Below, piece after piece: positions 13,292 to 20,926 of a stretch of DNA of 33,742 nucleotides. The position numbers and the translations under genes were made by a program. The DNA comes from Deltaproteobacteria bacterium (GTDB lineage Bacteria > Desulfobacterota > Syntrophia > Syntrophales > Smithellaceae). Position 1 is the first letter of the stretch, and each line of letters opens with the position of its first letter. Location of the stretch: assembly GCA_022703375.1 (NCBI GenBank), contig JAKLDS010000024.1:1-33742 (forward strand), given 5' to 3'. The notes under the pieces were generated by a model, which was not told the DNA's origin, ran no database searches, and worked only from the letters and a program-made list of their open reading frames with translations.

Positions 13292-13389
13292 TGGCGGAAG
13301 TGCATGGGAATCGAACCCACCCGGGAGGGTACTAGCCCCCCACACCGGATTTGAAGTCCGGGAGGCCCACCAGTGACCTTGGCACTTCC
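13292..13389 (-). tRNA. selC: tRNA-Sec, anticodon TCA
   Basis: Read on the minus strand, the acceptor stem is eight pairs (GGAAGTGC with GCACTTCC), with discriminator G and an encoded CCA. The anticodon arm is CCGGA-CTTCAAA-TCCGG with TCA as anticodon, reading UGA. A long variable arm (about 20 bases, GGGG/CCCT-rich) and a T loop GTTCGATT follow. The long acceptor stem, total length of about 98 with CCA, and UCA anticodon identify selenocysteine tRNA. It is aminoacylated with serine by SerRS and converted to Sec-tRNA by SelA, then delivered by SelB at UGA codons with a SECIS. No selA, selB or selD and no obvious selenoprotein lie in this window, so those must be elsewhere. Confidence 0.95.
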
Positions 13390-14472: not shown

Positions 14473-14925
14473 TCATGGTTTTTCCAGAAGATTTGCATGA
14501 TTATTTTGCAGCCAGGCATTTACATCGTCACTCAACTGCTTTGCCAATAAATACATTTCAGCAGCTTCCTGATCGGACACCATACCCGCCCTTTCATAGC
14601 CCCCGATATTTCTTTTCGTCCGGAATTTGTCGAATTTATTAATAAGAAGCGGCGGCGCGTCTATTGTATATTTAAGTGATTGGATAATGCGAAAATGATG
14701 GGAATCCCGCGCTGCCCGATACCCTGACGCAGCCAGTGCAGCTGTCGCCGCCTGCAAAGCGGCGTTATAAGAAATATTCAAGCGCCAGTCAGCGCTAAGG
14801 CCCTGGGCCTGACAATCGCAAAGATCGCGGTTGACCAAAACCAGCAGATCGGTAATTTCCTGCGGGCTTGTTTCGTGCGGAGCCAACCAGCCGTTATGCA
14901 ACCAGTTTTGCAAGGTCATTTTCAT
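14473..14925 (-). CDS. HEPN-domain protein, likely toxin of an MNT/HEPN module
   Basis: 150 residues, mostly helical. The N-terminal half has a hydrophobic helix with YNAALQAATAALAASGYRA, followed by HHFRIIQSL, and the C-terminal helix carries RTKRNIGGYERAG. An RN...Y motif of this kind is typical of HEPN proteins related to the SAV_6107-like group. HEPN partners of minimal nucleotidyltransferases are usually RNases, and in studied cases the MNT partner adenylylates the toxin on a Tyr. The start overlaps the upstream MNT gene by 32 bases, a strong sign of coupling; ATGs at codons 1 and 3 are both possible. Toxicity here is inferred from family and context. Confidence 0.8.
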   Translation of the reverse strand: MKMTLQNWLHNGWLAPHETSPQEITDLLVLVNRDLCDCQAQGLSADWRLNISYNAALQAATAALAASGYRAARDSHHFRIIQSLKYTIDAPPLLINKFDKFRTKRNIGGYERAGMVSDQEAAEMYLLAKQLSDDVNAWLQNNHANLLEKP

Positions 14926-15505
14926 TGCCTATCAGGAATAATTTCTTTTCTTTATAAACCGTCTTAATAAAATGATGCCCCTTTGCCAATTTGTTTTTAA
15001 ACTCCATAACTGGATAAACGGAAGCGTTAATTTCTCTGTTCAGCATTTGCTGGACGGGAGTAATTTCCTTAATCACCTCATCAAACGTAACATCACCTAT
15101 GACCAGAACATCTACATCGCTTTTTTTGTTTTCCTCGCCGCGGGCTATGGAACCGAAGATAAAAGCGACGCGAATATTTTCTGCCAGCGGCGCCAAGGCA
15201 ATTTTCAGGACATCTCCCATACCGGATGTTTTTATGACAATGCTTTTTAATTCGGAAAAAACCGGACACTGCGAGTTAGCCTGATAATAATTCTGCCTGC
15301 CTGTGCTCACGCGCCTTATGATGCCTGCTTTGGTGAGAGCCTTAACTTCCCTTTGCACTGCTCCCATGCCGCCGCTGACTATGCGGGTTAATTGCCTTAG
15401 ATAAAAAGTTTCATCGGAGTGTCCGTAGAAAACAGCAAGAATATTATGACGAGTCTTGCCGAAAAGAATATTGGAAAGGCAATCATTTATCGGTTCTGAA
15501 TTCAT
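14894..15505 (-). CDS. Winged-helix + minimal nucleotidyltransferase (MNT) antitoxin
   Basis: 203 residues. Residues about 10-85 are a winged-helix DNA-binding domain (TFYLRQLTRIVSGGMGAVQREVKALTKAGIIRR). Residues about 105-200 form a pol-beta-type nucleotidyltransferase with the signature FGSIARGEENKKSDVDVLVIGD (GS...RG....SDxD). Fusion of a DNA-reading domain to the MNT suggests that this antitoxin both inactivates its HEPN partner and represses its own promoter. The ribosome site AGGA precedes the ATG at 15505. A nested palindrome lies 12-53 bases upstream and overlaps the putative promoter. The first gene of a two-gene operon. Confidence 0.88.
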   Translation of the reverse strand: MNSEPINDCLSNILFGKTRHNILAVFYGHSDETFYLRQLTRIVSGGMGAVQREVKALTKAGIIRRVSTGRQNYYQANSQCPVFSELKSIVIKTSGMGDVLKIALAPLAENIRVAFIFGSIARGEENKKSDVDVLVIGDVTFDEVIKEITPVQQMLNREINASVYPVMEFKNKLAKGHHFIKTVYKEKKLFLIGNENDLAKLVA

Positions 15506-15516
15506 GATTAATCCTC

Positions 15517-15564
15517 ATGCACCTATTTTGGGTACAATTGTACCCTTTTTGGGTGCATTTGCAA
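15517..15564 (-). promoter_or_regulatory. Promoter with nested palindromic operator for the MNT/HEPN pair
   Basis: A perfect 16-bp palindrome GGGTACAATTGTACCC lies at 15530-15545. It is enclosed symmetrically (six bases on each side) by ATGCACC at 15517-15523 and GGTGCAT at 15552-15558. On the minus strand a -10 like TACAAT (15537-15542) sits 16 bases from TTGCAA (15559-15564), so the palindrome covers the promoter core. That is a classic arrangement for autorepression by the winged-helix domain of the first gene. Confidence 0.7.
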
Positions 15565-16021
15565 GAATAATTTTAAAACAACATCAAGTTTGCTTATCTT
15601 TTTATGTCAAAGCGTCTGGAGGATTTCTTTATATTGGACAAATTATCCATAAATTAACCATTGGGCTTTTTGTCCTTATTACCACGAATTACCCCGCGAT
15701 GGAAGTTCATTTCTATTTGATATTTAGGTGTTTTTTACTATTTACATTATTTGGGAAATGCTTTAATCTTACGCAAATTTTCGGAAAAAGCCCATTGGGT
15801 ATATTAATTGTTGGAAGGTAAAAATTGATGCGTCATTGTCAGACGAAAGCTATTTGGCGACACATATAATAAGGATGGGGTAAAAAAACGCGAAAAATTT
15901 TTTGCCCAAATTTTTCAAACTTCTATTATTATTAATAAATCCCATCTATTCAAGTAATCCCGTCCGGGAACATTTCTAATCTTCCTAACAAGTCCCGTTT
16001 GTCGCTTATTACCTTACTCCT
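15565..16021. other. AT-rich non-coding stretch between TA module and cassette region
   Basis: About 450 bases of low-GC sequence. A 121-codon + strand frame (15456-15821) is hydrophobic but begins inside the MNT gene and has no ribosome site, so I do not call it. An inverted repeat is present: CCATTGGGCTTTTT at 15658-15671 and AAAAAGCCCATTGG at 15785-15798, 13 of 14 complementary. It could be a small non-autonomous element or chance. CCTAACAAG at 15984-15992 resembles the start of an attC site but has no matching 3' box. Confidence 0.45.
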
Positions 16022-16165
16022 TACAGTCATCTAATTCCTGCACCCGTTTTATCTGTATGCGCTGAAATCGCGGCACGCCGTGAGACTCACGCTACGCTGG
16101 ATAGCCTGTTCATATACGCAGGCGCACCCGGTGAACCACCTCCGGGTAGCAAACCTGCTAAGTCA

Positions 16166-16834
16166 TTGACTTGGTTACGCCTTGTAAATAAGGACGAAAA
16201 CATCAACCCTCTCGACGTGCTCGGGCGGCTAATCGAAAACTACATGGAAGCTCCACTCGATCCAAACAACACGTGGGACATAGAGAGTTTAAAAGATCGA
16301 GAACGAATTACAAATGTATTAGCACATAGCGAACTTCAGTATGTAAAAGGTGGAAAACTAGTTGGAGCACTTGGTGCGCCTTCTAAGACACTAGAAGACT
16401 TTATAAAGGATCGTGATTTCGTTTCCATCGACATGGAATTTAAACGAGCACTATCAAATGTTGAAGTAAATCCCCGTGAGGCTGTTTCTGCAGCGAGCAA
16501 TATTCTTGAATCAGTCTGCAAAGTATATATAGCAGAGGAAGATTTAGAATCACCAGCCAAGCAAGACTTGAAACACGTTTGGTCGGTTGTCCGCAAACAT
16601 CTTGGGTTTGATCCGAGCATAGTTGAAGACCAAGACCTTCAACAAATATTAACAGGTCTTATTTCAATAACAGAGGGTATCGGTGCATTACGAACTCACG
16701 CCAGTTCGGCACATGGGGCAGGTAAAAAGATTTACAAGCTCGAACCACGTCATGCGCGTTTGGCAATTCATTCCGCCCATACTGTTGTTTTGTTTGTACT
16801 TGAATCATGGCGTAAAAAGAAAAAAGATTTCTAA
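16166..16834 (+). CDS. Abortive-infection family protein (Abi_C-like), start unresolved
   Basis: 222 residues from a TTG at 16166, the first canonical start codon. The C-terminal half (about 90-220; ALSNVEVNPREAVSAASNILESVC..., then ITEGIGALRTHASSAHG) matches the Abi_C-type domain found in putative phage abortive-infection proteins. Most such proteins are of unproven mechanism. The reading frame stays open upstream to 15989 and encodes LDSLFIYAGAPGEPPPGSK, which I remember as typical N-terminal sequence of this family. The true protein therefore probably starts near 16034, where only a rare ATT exists, or its start has been lost. The stop TAA is embedded in the attC box TTCTAAC, as expected for an integron cassette. 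Expression may come from outside the cassette. Confidence 0.72.
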   Translation: MTWLRLVNKDENINPLDVLGRLIENYMEAPLDPNNTWDIESLKDRERITNVLAHSELQYVKGGKLVGALGAPSKTLEDFIKDRDFVSIDMEFKRALSNVEVNPREAVSAASNILESVCKVYIAEEDLESPAKQDLKHVWSVVRKHLGFDPSIVEDQDLQQILTGLISITEGIGALRTHASSAHGAGKKIYKLEPRHARLAIHSAHTVVLFVLESWRKKKKDF

Positions 16835-16885
16835 CAAAAGCAATACACCCGATCGCTTACGCTCCGGCTGATTTTTTCGTTCGCT
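16829..16885 (+). mobile_element. attC site A (after the abortive-infection gene)
   Basis: 57 bases. R'' TTCTAAC (16829-16835) contains the TAA stop of the upstream gene. The imperfect inner stem is CCGATCGC-TTAC-GCTCCGG, followed by the CTGATTTTTTC tail and R' GTTCGCT (16879-16885). The CTCCGGCTGA-TTTT-C tail is shared with site C and partly with site D. Confidence 0.8.
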
Positions 16886-16895
16886 ATAATAATAA

Positions 16896-16937
16896 TTGAC
16901 GTTATGACGTCATAGTGCTATAACAACATAACGTCAA
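16896..16937 (+). promoter_or_regulatory. Promoter and operator of the RHH/RelE cassette
   Basis: TTGACG (16896-16901) and TATAAC (16919-16924) are separated by 17 bases, with an extended -10 TG at 16916-16917, giving a near-consensus sigma70 promoter. An 11-bp inverted repeat TTGACGTTATG (16896-16906) / CATAACGTCAA (16927-16937) frames it, and a perfect 12-bp palindrome TATGACGTCATA lies at 16903-16914. These repeated TGACGT half-sites are the expected target of the ribbon-helix-helix antitoxin. The cassette thus carries its own regulated promoter. Confidence 0.75.
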
Positions 16938-16950
16938 GGGAGGTGATATT

Positions 16951-17184
16951 ATGGGAACAGCGGCAATAAGAGCGACTGTATATTTAGACCCCGAATTACA
17001 CAAAGCACTTAGATTGAAGGCTGTTGAAACAGCTCAGTCTTTATCAAAGTTAGTCAATGATGCTATCAAGGAGTCTCTTGCAGAAGACGCAGAAGACATT
17101 GCGGCATTTGAAGCTAGAGCAAAAGAGCCGCTAATCAGCTATGAAGCTATGATCAAGAGGCTTAAAAAAGATGGGCGAATATAA
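16951..17184 (+). CDS. Ribbon-helix-helix (CopG-type) antitoxin
   Basis: 77 residues behind a strong GGGAGGTG ribosome site. Residues 5-45 form the ribbon-helix-helix fold: the beta strand AIRATVYLD and two helices (PELHKALRLKAVETAQ, LSKLVNDAIKESL). The acidic C-terminal tail (AEDAEDIAAFEAR...) is the likely toxin-neutralising part. Such antitoxins bind as dimers to direct or inverted repeats in their own promoter; the repeats at 16896-16937 fit. The gene overlaps the toxin gene by 14 bases. Both lie in one integron cassette bounded by matching GTTCGCT/AGCGAAC boxes, where they would stabilise the array. Confidence 0.88.
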   Translation: MGTAAIRATVYLDPELHKALRLKAVETAQSLSKLVNDAIKESLAEDAEDIAAFEARAKEPLISYEAMIKRLKKDGRI

Positions 17185-17428
17185 AATCTTCTTTAAAGAA
17201 TCCGTTGAAAAAGACCTTCGCTCAATCCCCAAAAAAGATTTAAAGAAGATTCTCTTACGCATTGAAACACTTGCGAAAGATCCAAGGCCGCCGGGCCACG
17301 AGAAACTATCCGGCCAAGAGAAATATCGTATTCGCCAAGGCACTTACAGAATTATATATTCCATTCAAGATCGAGAACTTACTGTATGGGTGGTAAAAGT
17401 TAGTCATCGCAAAGATGTTTATCGCTGA
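17171..17428 (+). CDS. RelE/ParE-family toxin
   Basis: 85 residues starting inside the antitoxin gene (14-base overlap). Compact RelE/ParE fold: YKIFFKESVEKDLRSIPKKDLKKILLRIETLAKDP, the RPPGHEKLSG loop, YRIRQGTYRIIYSI strands and the terminal VVKVSHRKDVYR. RelE members cut mRNA in the ribosome while ParE members poison gyrase; the Lys/Arg pattern with KVSHRKDVY is commonly annotated RelE-type but does not settle the target. The stop TGA is at 17426-17428, immediately before the attC R'' box AGCGAAC at 17429. Confidence 0.9.
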   Translation: MGEYKIFFKESVEKDLRSIPKKDLKKILLRIETLAKDPRPPGHEKLSGQEKYRIRQGTYRIIYSIQDRELTVWVVKVSHRKDVYR

Positions 17429-17468
17429 AGCGAACAAATCGCTAGAGCCGAGCGCCGCTCCGTTACCC
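17429..17468 (+). mobile_element. attC site B, apparently with an internal deletion
   Basis: R'' AGCGAAC (17429-17435) and R' GTTACCC (17462-17468) enclose only 26 bases. The left half AAATCGCTAGAGCCGAGCGCCGCTCC aligns with site C, but the right-hand CGGCTGAGCTTTTC portion is missing, so the hairpin cannot form normally. It may no longer recombine efficiently. Confidence 0.7.
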
Positions 17469-17481
17469 ATGAAACAGTATA

Positions 17482-17525
17482 TTGCATTATGTTGTATTAT
17501 GATGTATTATGCAGCATCATGCATT
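17482..17525 (+). promoter_or_regulatory. Phased repeat operator/promoter of the ParD-like cassette
   Basis: Four 10-base units in tandem at 17486-17525: ATTATGTTGT, ATTATGATGT, ATTATGCAGC, ATCATGCATT. A 10-base period puts each unit on the same DNA face, ideal for cooperative binding by an antitoxin. TTGCAT (17482) and TATTAT (17505) at 17-base spacing could be the promoter, with a good -10 and a poor -35. Confidence 0.55.
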
Positions 17526-17539
17526 TTGGAGGAAAATAT

Positions 17540-17758
17540 ATGCCTACAGCGGTTAGAATTTCAGAAAAGCTAGTTGATGAGGCAAAGAGATTTAGTCGCA
17601 TCGATCACCGGTCACTTGCAGGTCAAATCGAGCACTGGGCACGTTTGGGCAAGTGTGCTGAAGAAAATCCAGACTTGCCGTATTCGCTTATTAAGGAAAT
17701 CTTGTTCGGACTAGATGAATTGGATCAGGGTGAAAAAACAGAATACAAGTTTGGATAG
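17540..17758 (+). CDS. ParD-like antitoxin
   Basis: 72 residues from the ATG at 17540 with GGAGG eight bases upstream. The frame extends to 17489, but that part covers the operator repeats. The sequence TAVRISEKLVDEAKRFSRIDHRSLAGQIEHWARLG is the ParD-like ribbon-helix-helix pattern, followed by an acidic tail ending EKTEYKFG. It sits six bases upstream of a RelE-like toxin gene, so the pair forms a second toxin-antitoxin cassette. Autoregulation through the phased repeats upstream is likely. Confidence 0.82.
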   Translation: MPTAVRISEKLVDEAKRFSRIDHRSLAGQIEHWARLGKCAEENPDLPYSLIKEILFGLDELDQGEKTEYKFG

Positions 17759-17764
17759 GTTAAT

Positions 17765-18046
17765 ATGAAAATCTATCAATCAAGATTATTTGAGAAAAAA
17801 GTAAAGAAGATGACTAAAGCCGAAAAAAAAGCTTTAGACCGTGAGGTAAGGAATATTGCCGAGAATCTGAATATCGACGAAGAGAAAAAAGGAGATTTAA
17901 AGGGCGTATTTGTCCATAAATTCAAACTTAAAACAAATTTATATTTGTTGGCGTATCGGAAAGCCGACAAAGATTGGGAACTTGTCATGATTGGCTCTCA
18001 TGAAAATTACTATCGAAATCTTAAAAGCTACTTAAAAAGTAAATAA
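17765..18046 (+). CDS. RelE/ParE superfamily toxin
   Basis: 93 residues, very basic (about 25 Lys). Pattern: YQSRLFEKKVKKMTKAEKKALDREVRNIAENLNIDEEKKGDLKGVFVHKFKLKTNLYLLAYRK..., ending with WELVMIGSHENYYRNLKSYLK. This is the RelE-like toxin fold, with the GDLKG.FVHKF loop and the conserved terminal SHENYYR helix. It follows a ParD-like antitoxin by six bases. Target (mRNA or gyrase) cannot be read. The stop at 18044-18046 is three bases before attC site C, as in a compact cassette. Confidence 0.85.
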   Translation: MKIYQSRLFEKKVKKMTKAEKKALDREVRNIAENLNIDEEKKGDLKGVFVHKFKLKTNLYLLAYRKADKDWELVMIGSHENYYRNLKSYLKSK

Positions 18047-18049
18047 ATC

Positions 18050-18111
18050 GGGTAACAAGGTCGCTCAAGCCGCTCGCCGCTACGCAGCTCCGGCTGAGCT
18101 TTTCATTAGGC
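18050..18111 (+). mobile_element. attC site C (best preserved)
   Basis: 62 bases with R'' GGGTAAC (18050-18056), inner arms TCGCTCAAGCCGCTCGCCGC and GCAGCTCCGGCTGAGC that can pair imperfectly, and R' ATTAGGC (18105-18111). R' has A in place of the canonical G at the crossover base. The overall pattern, AACAA-TCAAGCCG-CGCCGCT-CGGCTGAGC-TTAGGC, closely resembles attC sites of classical aadA-type cassettes. Confidence 0.85.
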
Positions 18112-18180
18112 TCAATACGGCGAATAGAATAAATTTTGATACTGTAGCAACCATCTTATTACAAGGGGAGCAATAATATT

Positions 18181-18600
18181 ATGACAACTGTTCTGAAGAT
18201 GTGTGAAAAGGTAATGATTCTGGCCCTTATGGTCATGATGGCAATTGTTCTGCTGCTTGCCACAATCGATCTTGGCTGGCTTATCATAAAAGATATCATA
18301 AACCCACCGTATTTTCTGCTCAGTGTTGAGCAGTTGCTTGAGATTTTCGGACTCTTTATGTTGGTCGTGATAGGAATTGAACTGCTTGAAACAATAATGA
18401 AAACCTACGTAACCCAAGATCAACCCCATTACGAGGTTGTTCTCTCGGTGGCAATCATTGCGATTTCACGCAAGGTTATCATTTTAGATATCAAAGAGGT
18501 GGACAGCCTGACCTTAGTCGGAATTGCCTCTATTGTTGTTGCGCTGACTGCTGGCTATTATCTGATGAAAAGAGCCCGCTCTCACAACGGGGCAGAGTGA
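18181..18600 (+). CDS. PsiE-family inner-membrane protein
   Basis: 139 residues with AAGGGGAG upstream. Four hydrophobic segments: 10-35, 45-65, 85-100 and 112-128. The family signature is clear: LLEIFGLFMLVVIGIELLETIMKTY, then HYEVVLSVAIIAISRKVIILD. PsiE was named for phosphate-starvation induction in E. coli, but its biochemical role is unknown. It is the only recognised gene in the cassette 18106-18866 and starts 70 bases after the attC C crossover point. No promoter is obvious, so it may depend on upstream transcription. Confidence 0.87.
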   Translation: MTTVLKMCEKVMILALMVMMAIVLLLATIDLGWLIIKDIINPPYFLLSVEQLLEIFGLFMLVVIGIELLETIMKTYVTQDQPHYEVVLSVAIIAISRKVIILDIKEVDSLTLVGIASIVVALTAGYYLMKRARSHNGAE

Positions 18601-18872
18601 ACACAACTATAATTAATAATATTAAGAGCATTTCTGAATGGCTCTAAAAGAATAGAAACGGCATAACATCTATATGGCCTCCGGTTGTCAAGAAAATAGT
18701 TCTCCTATAGATCGGAAAAAGAGCAATAAAAAGTATCCAGCAAATCCAGCCCACGGCCTACGGCCGAGGAGAATGCCTCACAAGCGACAACCGCTTATTG
18801 ACGAAGGGTAAAACGATCCCTGAAAATTATGCGAAATTTTTATTTTGGAGTTTTTCTACAGAGTCGTTGGGA
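18601..18872 (+). other. Tail of the PsiE cassette with a possible degenerate attC (18775-18872)
   Basis: This cassette starts with TTAGGC, so its R'' should read GCCTAAC. GCCTCAC at 18775-18781, followed by AA, differs by one base, and R' GTTGGGA is exact at 18866-18872. The 98-base site between them does not share the CTCCGGCTGA tail of the other sites. An alternative is that the true attC was lost and GCCTCAC belongs to a dispersed repeat also seen at 13045. No other gene is seen here; GGCCTACGGCC at about 18756-18766 is a short palindrome. Confidence 0.4.
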
Positions 18873-18886
18873 GGACATAGAACACA

Positions 18887-19678
18887 ATGAACAGGAGAAA
18901 ATTTCTCGTAATCTCGGCAACGTCACTTGGTGGTCTATTGATTTCAGGGGCAGCCTACAGAATTTTCCGGCCTTCTGACCCACTCGACCCCTTCCGCAAG
19001 AGCACGAAGAAGGTGCTGACCGCCCGTTTCGGAAAATCCCGTGCAGACGAAATGATGAATAACATAAAAGCGACGTATGCCGGTATTGCCCCGTCTGTTC
19101 CAGACATTGGCGGTAAACAGAGCATGTGTACCGAATGGCTTGATAGCGGCGTTTACTATCTGGCGGTTTACCGTGTACTAAAACAGGCCGGTTACTCCAT
19201 TGACCAGATTGGAGAGATCATTTACAGAACCTACGAAACTATGGCCGATTATCCAAAGTGGTTATTAAACCTGGTTGGCAGGCTGAAATACAGCGAGAGT
19301 TACATGTCACGCCTCAAAGCAGCGGCGGCGGAATCACAAAACCGCCGCTATCCCGCAAGTTGGGTGTTCACCTTCGTTGAGGGCAATGGTGGGGAATTTG
19401 ATTATGGCCTGGATTTTACTGAATGTGGAATATGTAAGTTTTATGCCGCGCATCAGGCAATGGAACTGGCGCCTTATATGTGTCTGAGCGACTTTGTCAT
19501 CAATGAAGCCTTCAACAAAGGTCTGGTTCGGTACCATACCATTGCAGAAGGCAGTGACCGGTGCGACTTCCGTTTCAAAGCTGGGAGTAAAACCTTCGTC
19601 TATCCTTTACGCAACGGATGGCCTCCCCAGTTTTTAAAAAATAAAAACATCATTTGGTCCGGTCGAGGCGCTAAATGA
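18887..19678 (+). CDS. ATC-hydrolase-family protein with Tat-like signal
   Basis: 263 residues. The N-terminus MNRRKFLVISATSLGGLLISGAA is a twin-arginine type signal (RRKFL then a hydrophobic core), implying export of a folded protein, perhaps as a membrane-anchored domain. The soluble part (about 35-260) matches the L-2-amino-thiazoline-4-carboxylic acid hydrolase family: SIDQIGEIIYRTYE, LDFTECGICKFY, MELAPYMCLSDFVI and the terminal EGSDRCDFRF. Conserved Cys residues lie in TECGIC, YMCLSD and DRCDF. The founding enzyme acts in L-cysteine formation from ATC, but most homologues have unknown substrates. The ribosome site GGGAGGA overlaps the cassette's first bases (GTTGGGA at 18866-18872), so the gene starts right at the cassette boundary. 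Confidence 0.8.
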   Translation: MNRRKFLVISATSLGGLLISGAAYRIFRPSDPLDPFRKSTKKVLTARFGKSRADEMMNNIKATYAGIAPSVPDIGGKQSMCTEWLDSGVYYLAVYRVLKQAGYSIDQIGEIIYRTYETMADYPKWLLNLVGRLKYSESYMSRLKAAAAESQNRRYPASWVFTFVEGNGGEFDYGLDFTECGICKFYAAHQAMELAPYMCLSDFVINEAFNKGLVRYHTIAEGSDRCDFRFKAGSKTFVYPLRNGWPPQFLKNKNIIWSGRGAK

Positions 19679-19696
19679 TGGTGTGACAAAAATATA

Positions 19697-19762
19697 TCCC
19701 AACAAGGACAATACAGCGGATCGGCAGGCTACGCCCGCCTCCCGCTGCTTTTTTCGTTGGGA
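19697..19762 (+). mobile_element. attC site D (after the ATC-hydrolase-like gene)
   Basis: 66 bases with R'' TCCCAAC (19697-19703) and R' GTTGGGA (19756-19762), exact complements. Inner arms GCGGATCGGCAGGC and GCCCGCCTCCCGC pair imperfectly around TAC. The right tail CGCTGCTTTTTTC matches that of sites A and C. Confidence 0.85.
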
Positions 19763-20574: not shown

Positions 20575-20926
20575 CGGGATTATTCCATGTTGTTTCAGTG
20601 TTAACCCAGCCCACGACACATAATTCTCTTGAGAAAAGCATTACGATGTTTTAAATAACTTTATATGGCAAGAATAGCAAGAATAAATGGGAGCAATTTT
20701 TAATGATTGTGCGGCAATCGGCTAAAACGATGGCAGAATTTAGGTCTGTTCCGGCTCACTTTATCTTTCGTTAACATTATGAAAATAAGTGGCCTGGGTT
20801 TTGACAAATGGTTCGCCTGACATTTTTTATGCGCTTTGCTTACAGCGGTATTGCAGTTTCTCCAATACCTGGCGCTGCATTCCGGCTGATCATTAAGATG
20901 TATGTTTTATTCCTTTGAGTTTGCTT
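20575..20926. other. Intergenic stretch between tspO and the CPBP gene
   Basis: About 350 bases between divergently transcribed genes, so promoters for both should lie here. No convincing -35/-10 pair stands out. GTTAACA at 20770-20776, preceded by TTCCGGCTCACTTTATCTTTC, resembles the right half of the attC sites but has no R'' partner. No gene is seen. Confidence 0.4.

What the first reader, a model, noticed from the sequence alone, without database searches (positions are those of the whole stretch)
16829..19762. Gene-cassette array with attC-like sites and no integrase in view (CALIN-like)
Seen: four sites of 40-66 bases, each starting with an RYYYAAC-type box at or just after a stop codon and ending GTTRRRY-like. 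Three cassettes satisfy the crossover rule exactly (GTTCGCT with AGCGAAC; GTTACCC with GGGTAAC; GTTGGGA with TCCCAAC). Each is a 7-base exact complement between a cassette's first bases and its own R'' box, unlikely by chance three times. Known: integron cassettes have this geometry because recombination occurs between G and TT. Cargo (abortive infection, two toxin-antitoxin pairs, PsiE, a Tat-exported hydrolase) is typical of sedentary integrons. Inferred: the host carries or carried an integron integrase elsewhere.
Basis: partly seen in the sequence, partly recalled or inferred. Interest (0 to 1): 0.85.

Follow-up and report, generated by a model that had tools for sequence, protein, structure and literature searches.

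The report
Integron that lost its integrase gene
This stretch is a real gene-capturing integron whose integrase gene has been cut out while its docking site and captured genes remain, and related bacteria carry up to 15 such docking sites per genome, most without an integrase and many holding captured genes.

Summary
The cassette array is real. The fourth, 17429-17468, is truncated and does not score. The three crossover pairs are exact. The genome (a Smithellaceae-like MAG) has one full integron integrase, on another contig (C96).

The array starts earlier than reported. An exact attI core, GTATATTAATTG^TT, lies at 15799-15812. Upstream of it the sequence matches relatives on both sides of intI: up to 22 bp past the intI stop (window 15595) and again from 4 bp before the intI start (window 15621). 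The intI gene itself is gone, with a junction of about 25 bp. In relative G005 the same NTase-HEPN pair sits next to an intact intI, attI and array. So this CALIN most likely arose by intI loss in place.

The same attI core occurs about 149 times in 51 Smithellaceae genomes (reversed control: 1), up to 15 per genome and mostly without intI. Of 83 sites examined, 45 have an attC downstream, and first cassettes obey the crossover rule. One orthologous locus shows intact, fragmentary and absent intI. Whether IntI works on these orphan sites in trans is inferred, not shown.

The parts
14473..14925 (-). HEPN-like protein (PADLOC PDC-M05B), neighbour of intI in relative G005
   Evidence: PADLOC 5.1e-59; 67% identical orthologue next to intI in L148
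14894..15505 (-). nucleotidyltransferase (PDC-M05A), neighbour of intI in relative G005
   Evidence: Pfam NTP_transf_2, PADLOC 2e-72; 66% identical orthologue directly downstream of intI in G005
15596..15620 (.). junction where intI (about 1.3 kb, would be on - strand) is missing
   Evidence: homology to G005 L148 ends at 15595 (22 bp past the intI stop); homology to G010 L160 begins at 15621 (4 bp before the intI start); no intI remnant by tblastn
15621..15812 (+). former intI promoter / attI region
   Evidence: 67% over 207 bp to the intI-attI interval of G010; homologous also in C110, C61, G016, G018
15799..15812 (+). attI core GTATATTAATTG^TT, crossover between 15810 and 15811
   Evidence: exact 14-mer; same core beside intI in relatives; about 149 exact in 51 Smithellaceae genomes versus 1 control
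15811..16879 (+). cassette 1: Abi_C/AbiJ-like gene (ORF 16166-16834; open frame continues upstream without a usual start codon)
   Evidence: start GTTGGAA versus R'' TTCTAAC, 6/7; Pfam Abi_C 2.9e-21; translation
16829..16885 (+). attC of cassette 1
   Evidence: CM R1 62.4 bits
16880..17462 (+). cassette 2: RHH antitoxin 16951-17184 and ParE/YafQ-like toxin 17171-17428
   Evidence: Pfam/NCBIfam; exact 7/7 crossover pair
17429..17468 (+). truncated attC of cassette 2 (lacks L' half)
   Evidence: boxes AGCGAAC/GTTACCC present; not scored by CM
17463..18105 (+). cassette 3: ParD-like 17489-17758 and ParE-like 17765-18046
   Evidence: Pfam PF11903, PF15781; exact 7/7 crossover pair
18050..18111 (+). 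attC of cassette 3 (R' has A for G: ATTAGGC)
   Evidence: CM R1 43.2 bits
18106..18866 (+). cassette 4: PsiE-family membrane protein 18181-18600; attC reduced to its R'' box 18661-18667
   Evidence: Pfam PsiE 4.2e-29; R'' GCATAAC 6/7 to the cassette start taken as GTTAGGC
18668..18738 (+). relic of the end of an IS110/IS1111-type element that targets attC
   Evidence: up to 97% identical 75-bp element directly after R'' AAC in other Syntrophales loci; full copies carry a DEDD/Transposase_20 transposase
18867..19756 (+). cassette 5: ATC_hydrolase-family protein 18887-19678 with N-terminal twin-arginine motif
   Evidence: Pfam 1.3e-16; exact 7/7 crossover pair
19697..19762 (+). attC of cassette 5, last of the array
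   Evidence: CM R1 51 bits; bottom strand fold z -4.96

Best explanation
The array was built by an integron that stood here complete: NTase-HEPN, intI (on -), attI at 15799-15812, then five cassettes read on +. IntI inserted cassettes by recombining attC with attI at G15810^T15811. Later the intI coding sequence was deleted, leaving a junction at about 15596-15620, while attI, its promoter region and the cassettes stayed. Two attC sites then decayed: one truncated (17429-17468), one hit by an IS1111-type element that targets attC and has itself been mostly lost. Shown by comparison: the attC sites, the attI, the homology on both sides of the missing intI, intact intI at the equivalent place in a relative, and graded intI loss at another orthologous locus. 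Inferred: that this attI was functional, that the lost integrase was of the 430-460 residue type, and that attI sites without intI can still receive cassettes from an IntI acting in trans.
For: attC by an independent model; in relatives all 39 model hits lie on the array side of intI on the expected strand. Exact attI core 15799-15812, with the same core beside intI of G005, G010, G021, G034, G016 and with 1 mismatch G009, G018. Homology flanking the missing intI. G005: attC array - attI - intI - NTase - HEPN, same order and strands. No intI trace in 15400-16200. 83 dispersed sites: conservation stops at G^TT; attC 76 downstream same strand, 5 upstream, 1 opposite; first cassette obeys the rule in 31/45 versus 7.5 expected, maximum 16 of 2000 shuffles. 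intI fragments directly upstream of 5 sites and full intI at 2, of 88; none in the control region. Helicase locus: intact intI in G005, G010, G047, G042, G023, G002; remnant in G040, G011, G006; attI without intI in G015, G022, G045, G050, G044, and with 1 mismatch G001; attI-helicase spacing 146-149 bp in several.
Against: No congener is held, so the intact and deleted states of this exact locus are compared across genera (about 67% DNA identity in the flanks). The synteny with G005 covers only NTase-HEPN; beyond them gene order differs and the helicase lies on another contig (C99). The genome is a draft MAG; reads could not be inspected. Most orphan sites (81 of 88) show no intI trace, which also fits spread of an attI module without intI. 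No activity has been measured.
Confidence: 0.8

Rival explanations
1. attI spreads as a short module (about 120-280 bp) without intI; the window received an attI module plus cassettes and never had its own intI.
For: Many sites per genome (up to 15) with no intI trace; within G010 two sites are 98.5% identical over only 135 bp next to the crossover, and left borders of the shared region vary.
Against: In the window the homology resumes on the far side of intI right up to NTase-HEPN, as in G005. intI remnants of several sizes at other sites and the graded series at the helicase locus show loss in place.
Confidence: 0.15
2. The cassettes were inserted off target (attG-like) by the IntI encoded on C96, and the upstream attI resemblance is coincidental.
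For: A full IntI exists in the genome; single attCs lie on several other contigs; off-target insertion is a published route (Loot et al. 2024, cited in PMC11023631).
Against: An exact 14-base attI core with 190 bp of homologous upstream sequence precedes the first cassette. The C96 integron's own attI is different (CCACTTATTAATCTG^TT).
Confidence: 0.04
3. Assembly or binning artefact: intI was lost in assembly or the array comes from another organism.
For: Draft MAG of 120 contigs.
Against: Array and attI are internal to a 33.7-kb contig with ordinary neighbours (methionyl-tRNA synthetase, tRNA-Sec, TspO, RmuC); the attI core recurs in 35 of 51 genomes, including one of 10 contigs.
Confidence: 0.03

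Closest known systems
[quoted passage not shown]
   Same: Three model-scored attC sites in one orientation, no intI nearby; IntegronFinder calls a CALIN from 2 attC (PMC9024848).
   Different: attI and the intI promoter region are still in place, which CALIN callers do not search for (attI outside class 1 is not detected, PMC9024848).
Degraded chromosomal integrons of Xanthomonas (PMC12444791)
   Same: intI lost while cassette arrays persist at conserved loci.
   Different: There one platform (ilvD locus) plus CALINs at a few loci; here up to 15 attI sites per genome with a shared core sequence.
attG (off-target) cassette insertions
   Same: Cassettes outside a complete integron.
   Different: attG sites are not attC or attI and are broadly spread; here a conserved 14-base attI core and upstream region.
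IS1111-attC group of IS110-family elements (Tetu & Holmes 2008, cited in PMC11187229)
   Same: DEDD transposase (in full copies elsewhere), insertion at one end of attC sites.
   Different: In the window only about 70 bp of one end remains.

Membership tests
CALIN | at least two attC sites clustered in one orientation | tested here: met
   three CM-scored sites on + within 3 kb
CALIN | no integron integrase gene nearby | tested here: met
   own-genome TIGR02249 search: only C96 over cut-off; no tblastn hit beside the array
complete integron | intI adjacent to attI | tested here: not met
   attI at 15799-15812 without intI
integron attI site | site adjacent to intI in relatives, at which the first cassette begins | tested here: met
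   same core next to intI in 7 loci; first cassette begins at G^TT, crossover rule 31/45
integron attI site | recombines with attC in the presence of IntI | not testable with these tools
   needs a recombination assay
integron gene cassette | R'' of a cassette complementary to its own first bases | tested here: met
   7/7 for three cassettes, 6/7 for cassettes 1 and 4 (the latter taking the cassette start as GTTAGGC)
IS1111-attC element | IS110-family transposase and insertion at attC | tested here: inconclusive
   full copies elsewhere have PF01548/PF02371 and abut R''; the window holds only an end relic

The most novel reading that the evidence does not exclude
In Smithellaceae, and at lower copy number in other Syntrophales, integrons exist as a dispersed system: many attI sites per genome, most without intI, that acquired different cassettes in different species, served in trans by one integrase per cell or by integrases that come and go. 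attI would then be an independent, genome-wide cassette landing site rather than a companion of intI.
Probability: 0.5. Interest if true: 0.82.

Novelty: new variant of a known kind. Interest (0 to 1): 0.64.

Why it matters
How CALINs form is an open question with several proposed routes: off-target insertion, intI loss, rearrangement (Cury et al. as summarised in PMC8618304). A recognisable lineage-specific attI makes the routes distinguishable site by site, and here it points to intI loss with attI kept. The count of attI sites per genome runs against the usual picture of one attI beside one integrase, and the sites sit beside cassettes that differ between species, so these genomes may hold many cassette landing places that current tools do not report. 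It gives a direct experiment: can an orphan attI take up a cassette when IntI is supplied in trans?

Tried and rejected
A strict detector requiring R''/R' complementarity within one attC found only 19697-19762 as a plausible site; rejected because in an array R' belongs to the next cassette. Rfam gathering search found no attC family, only tRNA-Sec. A first MAFFT attC alignment (A1) shifted R'' by one base and was not used for the model. The region 18600-18866 was first thought to be a decayed attC; it proved to hold an IS110-family end; no match in plasmids. Search for an empty site with the right-hand flank gave no syntenic relative. One tblastn run used an invalid option and returned nothing; repeated correctly. 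The Cury 2016 paper is not held.
Full report
OBSERVATION. The window is contig C38 of a 2.57-Mb draft genome. Its integron integrase is up to 88% identical to those of Smithella and Smithellaceae MAGs, so the host is a Smithellaceae-like member of Syntrophales. A covariance model built from six attC sites of other genomes scores 16829-16885, 18050-18111 and 19697-19762 with 62.4, 43.2 and 51 bits; the next hit in the window has 14.2 bits. The three crossover pairs are exact. As a check on the model, all 39 hits in 32 integron loci lie upstream of intI on the opposite strand, as array geometry demands.

INTEGRASE. The genome has one integron integrase over the TIGR02249 cut-off, on C96 (431.6 bits), with an attC on its array side at C96:120-180. 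Its attI is TTTCCACTTATTAATCTG^TTGTGA, judged by the exact match of the first cassette start to R'' TCACAAC. It is 48-51% identical to the 430-460 residue integrases discussed below. The tyrosine recombinases on C44, C49, C110 and C4 are below the TIGR02249 cut-off. Other attC sites lie on C61, C4, C110, C88, C32, C66 and C33.

THE MISSING INTEGRASE. The NTase-HEPN pair left of the array (14473-15505, -) has orthologues in G005 directly downstream of an intact 434-residue IntI, whose attC array lies on the other side. Order and strands match the window except that intI is absent. DNA comparison shows homology to G005 from NTase up to window 15595, which is 22 bp past the G005 intI stop, and homology to the G010 integron from window 15621, which is 4 bp before the G010 intI start, through 15825. 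Within this stretch lies GTATATTAATTG^TT at 15799-15812. The same core stands beside intI in G005, G010, G021, G034 and G016, and with one mismatch in G009 and G018. In each, the sequence after G^TT differs. This is the attI. The first window cassette therefore runs from 15811, and its first bases GTTGGAA pair 6/7 with R'' TTCTAAC at 16829.

THE ARRAY. Cassettes: (1) Abi_C/AbiJ-like, whose open frame extends upstream of 16166 without a usual start codon; (2) RHH antitoxin with ParE/YafQ-like toxin; (3) ParD-like with ParE-like; (4) PsiE; (5) ATC_hydrolase family with a twin-arginine motif. Cassette 4 keeps only the R'' box (GCATAAC, 18661-18667), followed by 70 bp that are up to 97% identical to the end of an element found directly after R''-type boxes in other Syntrophales and Desulfobacterota loci. 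Full copies carry an IS110-family transposase (PF01548, PF02371). IS1111-family elements that target attC are known (PMC11187229, citing Tetu & Holmes 2008 and Post & Hall 2009).

DISPERSED attI SITES. The own genome has three exact cores: the window, C110:262 and C61:2038. A fourth with one mismatch is at C61:9382 (other one-mismatch hits lack the upstream homology). C110 and C61:2038 are followed by attC sites whose R'' pairs 7/7 and 6/7 with the bases after attI. In 51 Smithellaceae genomes the exact core occurs about 149 times (hand sum of the table) against one match of the reversed control, in 35 genomes, up to 15 per genome. In 104 further Syntrophales genomes there are about 49 against 3 controls (hand sum). 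I fetched 80 loci with 83 sites. Base conservation ends at G^TT apart from the RRR tendency that follows. Of attC hits within 4.6 kb, 76 are downstream on the same strand, 5 upstream, 1 opposite; 45 of 83 sites have an attC within 2.5 kb. In those, at least 3 of 4 variable bases of the crossover pair match in 31 of 45, against 7.5 expected and 16 at most in 2000 shuffles. So these are attI sites carrying inserted cassettes.

Only two of 88 sites have a full intI; five more have fragments of 20 to about 150 residues in the right place and orientation; the control region downstream has none. At one orthologous position, next to a PIF1-like helicase gene (family by resemblance, not tested), intI is intact in G005, G010, G047, G042, G023 and (a different clade) G002; a remnant in G040, G011 (residues 1-70 fused in frame to 352-428) and G006; and absent with attI kept in G015, G022, G045, G050 and G044, and G001 with one mismatch. 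The attI-helicase distance is 146-149 bp in several genomes of one genus, which points to a single shared deletion. This is intI loss in place.

Orthologous orphan sites differ in cassettes: G007/G012 (85.6% identity over 1.4 kb ending at G^TT) and G015/G022 (87% over 1.7 kb ending 2 bases past it) diverge from there on. Two further sets of loci with conserved flanks have arrays of different length. One cassette of about 650 bp is shared, at 90-93%, by three different attI loci in G005, G022 and G011. Several near-complete genomes with such sites show no IntI over the cut-off or at E 1e-60, for example G015 (10 contigs, 98% complete) and G022. Either intI was lost after the cassettes arrived, or IntI acts from elsewhere; this is not resolved.

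COMPARISON WITH THE LITERATURE. CALINs have been explained by off-target insertion, by loss of intI or by rearrangement (PMC8618304, summarising Cury et al.). IntegronFinder does not detect attI outside class 1 (PMC9024848). Xanthomonas shows CALINs at conserved loci after loss of intI (PMC12444791). I found no paper on integrons of Smithella or Syntrophales and none on multiple dispersed attI sites; the library is partial, so this is weak evidence of novelty.

VERDICT. The window is a CALIN in the formal sense and, more exactly, an integron with its integrase deleted and its attI kept. As a single locus it is a modest result; as one of very many attI sites without intI in this lineage it is of clear interest.

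Noticed in passing
window 14473-15505: NTase-HEPN pair matches the PADLOC candidate phage-defence system PDC-M05 (A and B) and lies beside an integron in G005 as well.
   Followed up: partly
window 18668-18738; L163, L164, L172, L107, L067: End of an IS110-family element sits directly after AAC of R''-type boxes in about 15 loci; its conserved non-coding end is a good place to look for a seekRNA/bridge RNA that targets attC.
   Followed up: partly
L155 (own contig C4, 4172 bp): Tyrosine recombinase next to an IS91-like transposase ORF (by resemblance) and two attC sites.
   Followed up: no
window 20768-20813; L153 6006-6050 (own C88:36005); L161 1598-1633 (G042): A 36-46 bp repeat (83-86%) that in C88 and G042 also lies downstream of attC sites.
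   Followed up: no
G015, G022, G007, G012, G044: 2-15 attI cores but no detectable IntI in the genome.
   Followed up: partly
L325 (G002:C9), L304 (G006:C59): At the helicase locus the integrase or its remnant is of the C96 type instead of the 430-460 residue type, so different IntI clades have used one position.
   Followed up: no
L272 5001 and 5067 (G012:C106); G044:C27:5777 and 6312: Pairs of attI cores only 66 and 535 bp apart (the first pair next to runs of N).
   Followed up: no
L148 7773 (G005:C53): A second attI-like core (1 mismatch) 5.5 kb from the intact integron on the same contig.
   Followed up: no
window 13296-13389: Selenocysteine tRNA gene on the - strand (Rfam 74.8 bits).
   Followed up: no
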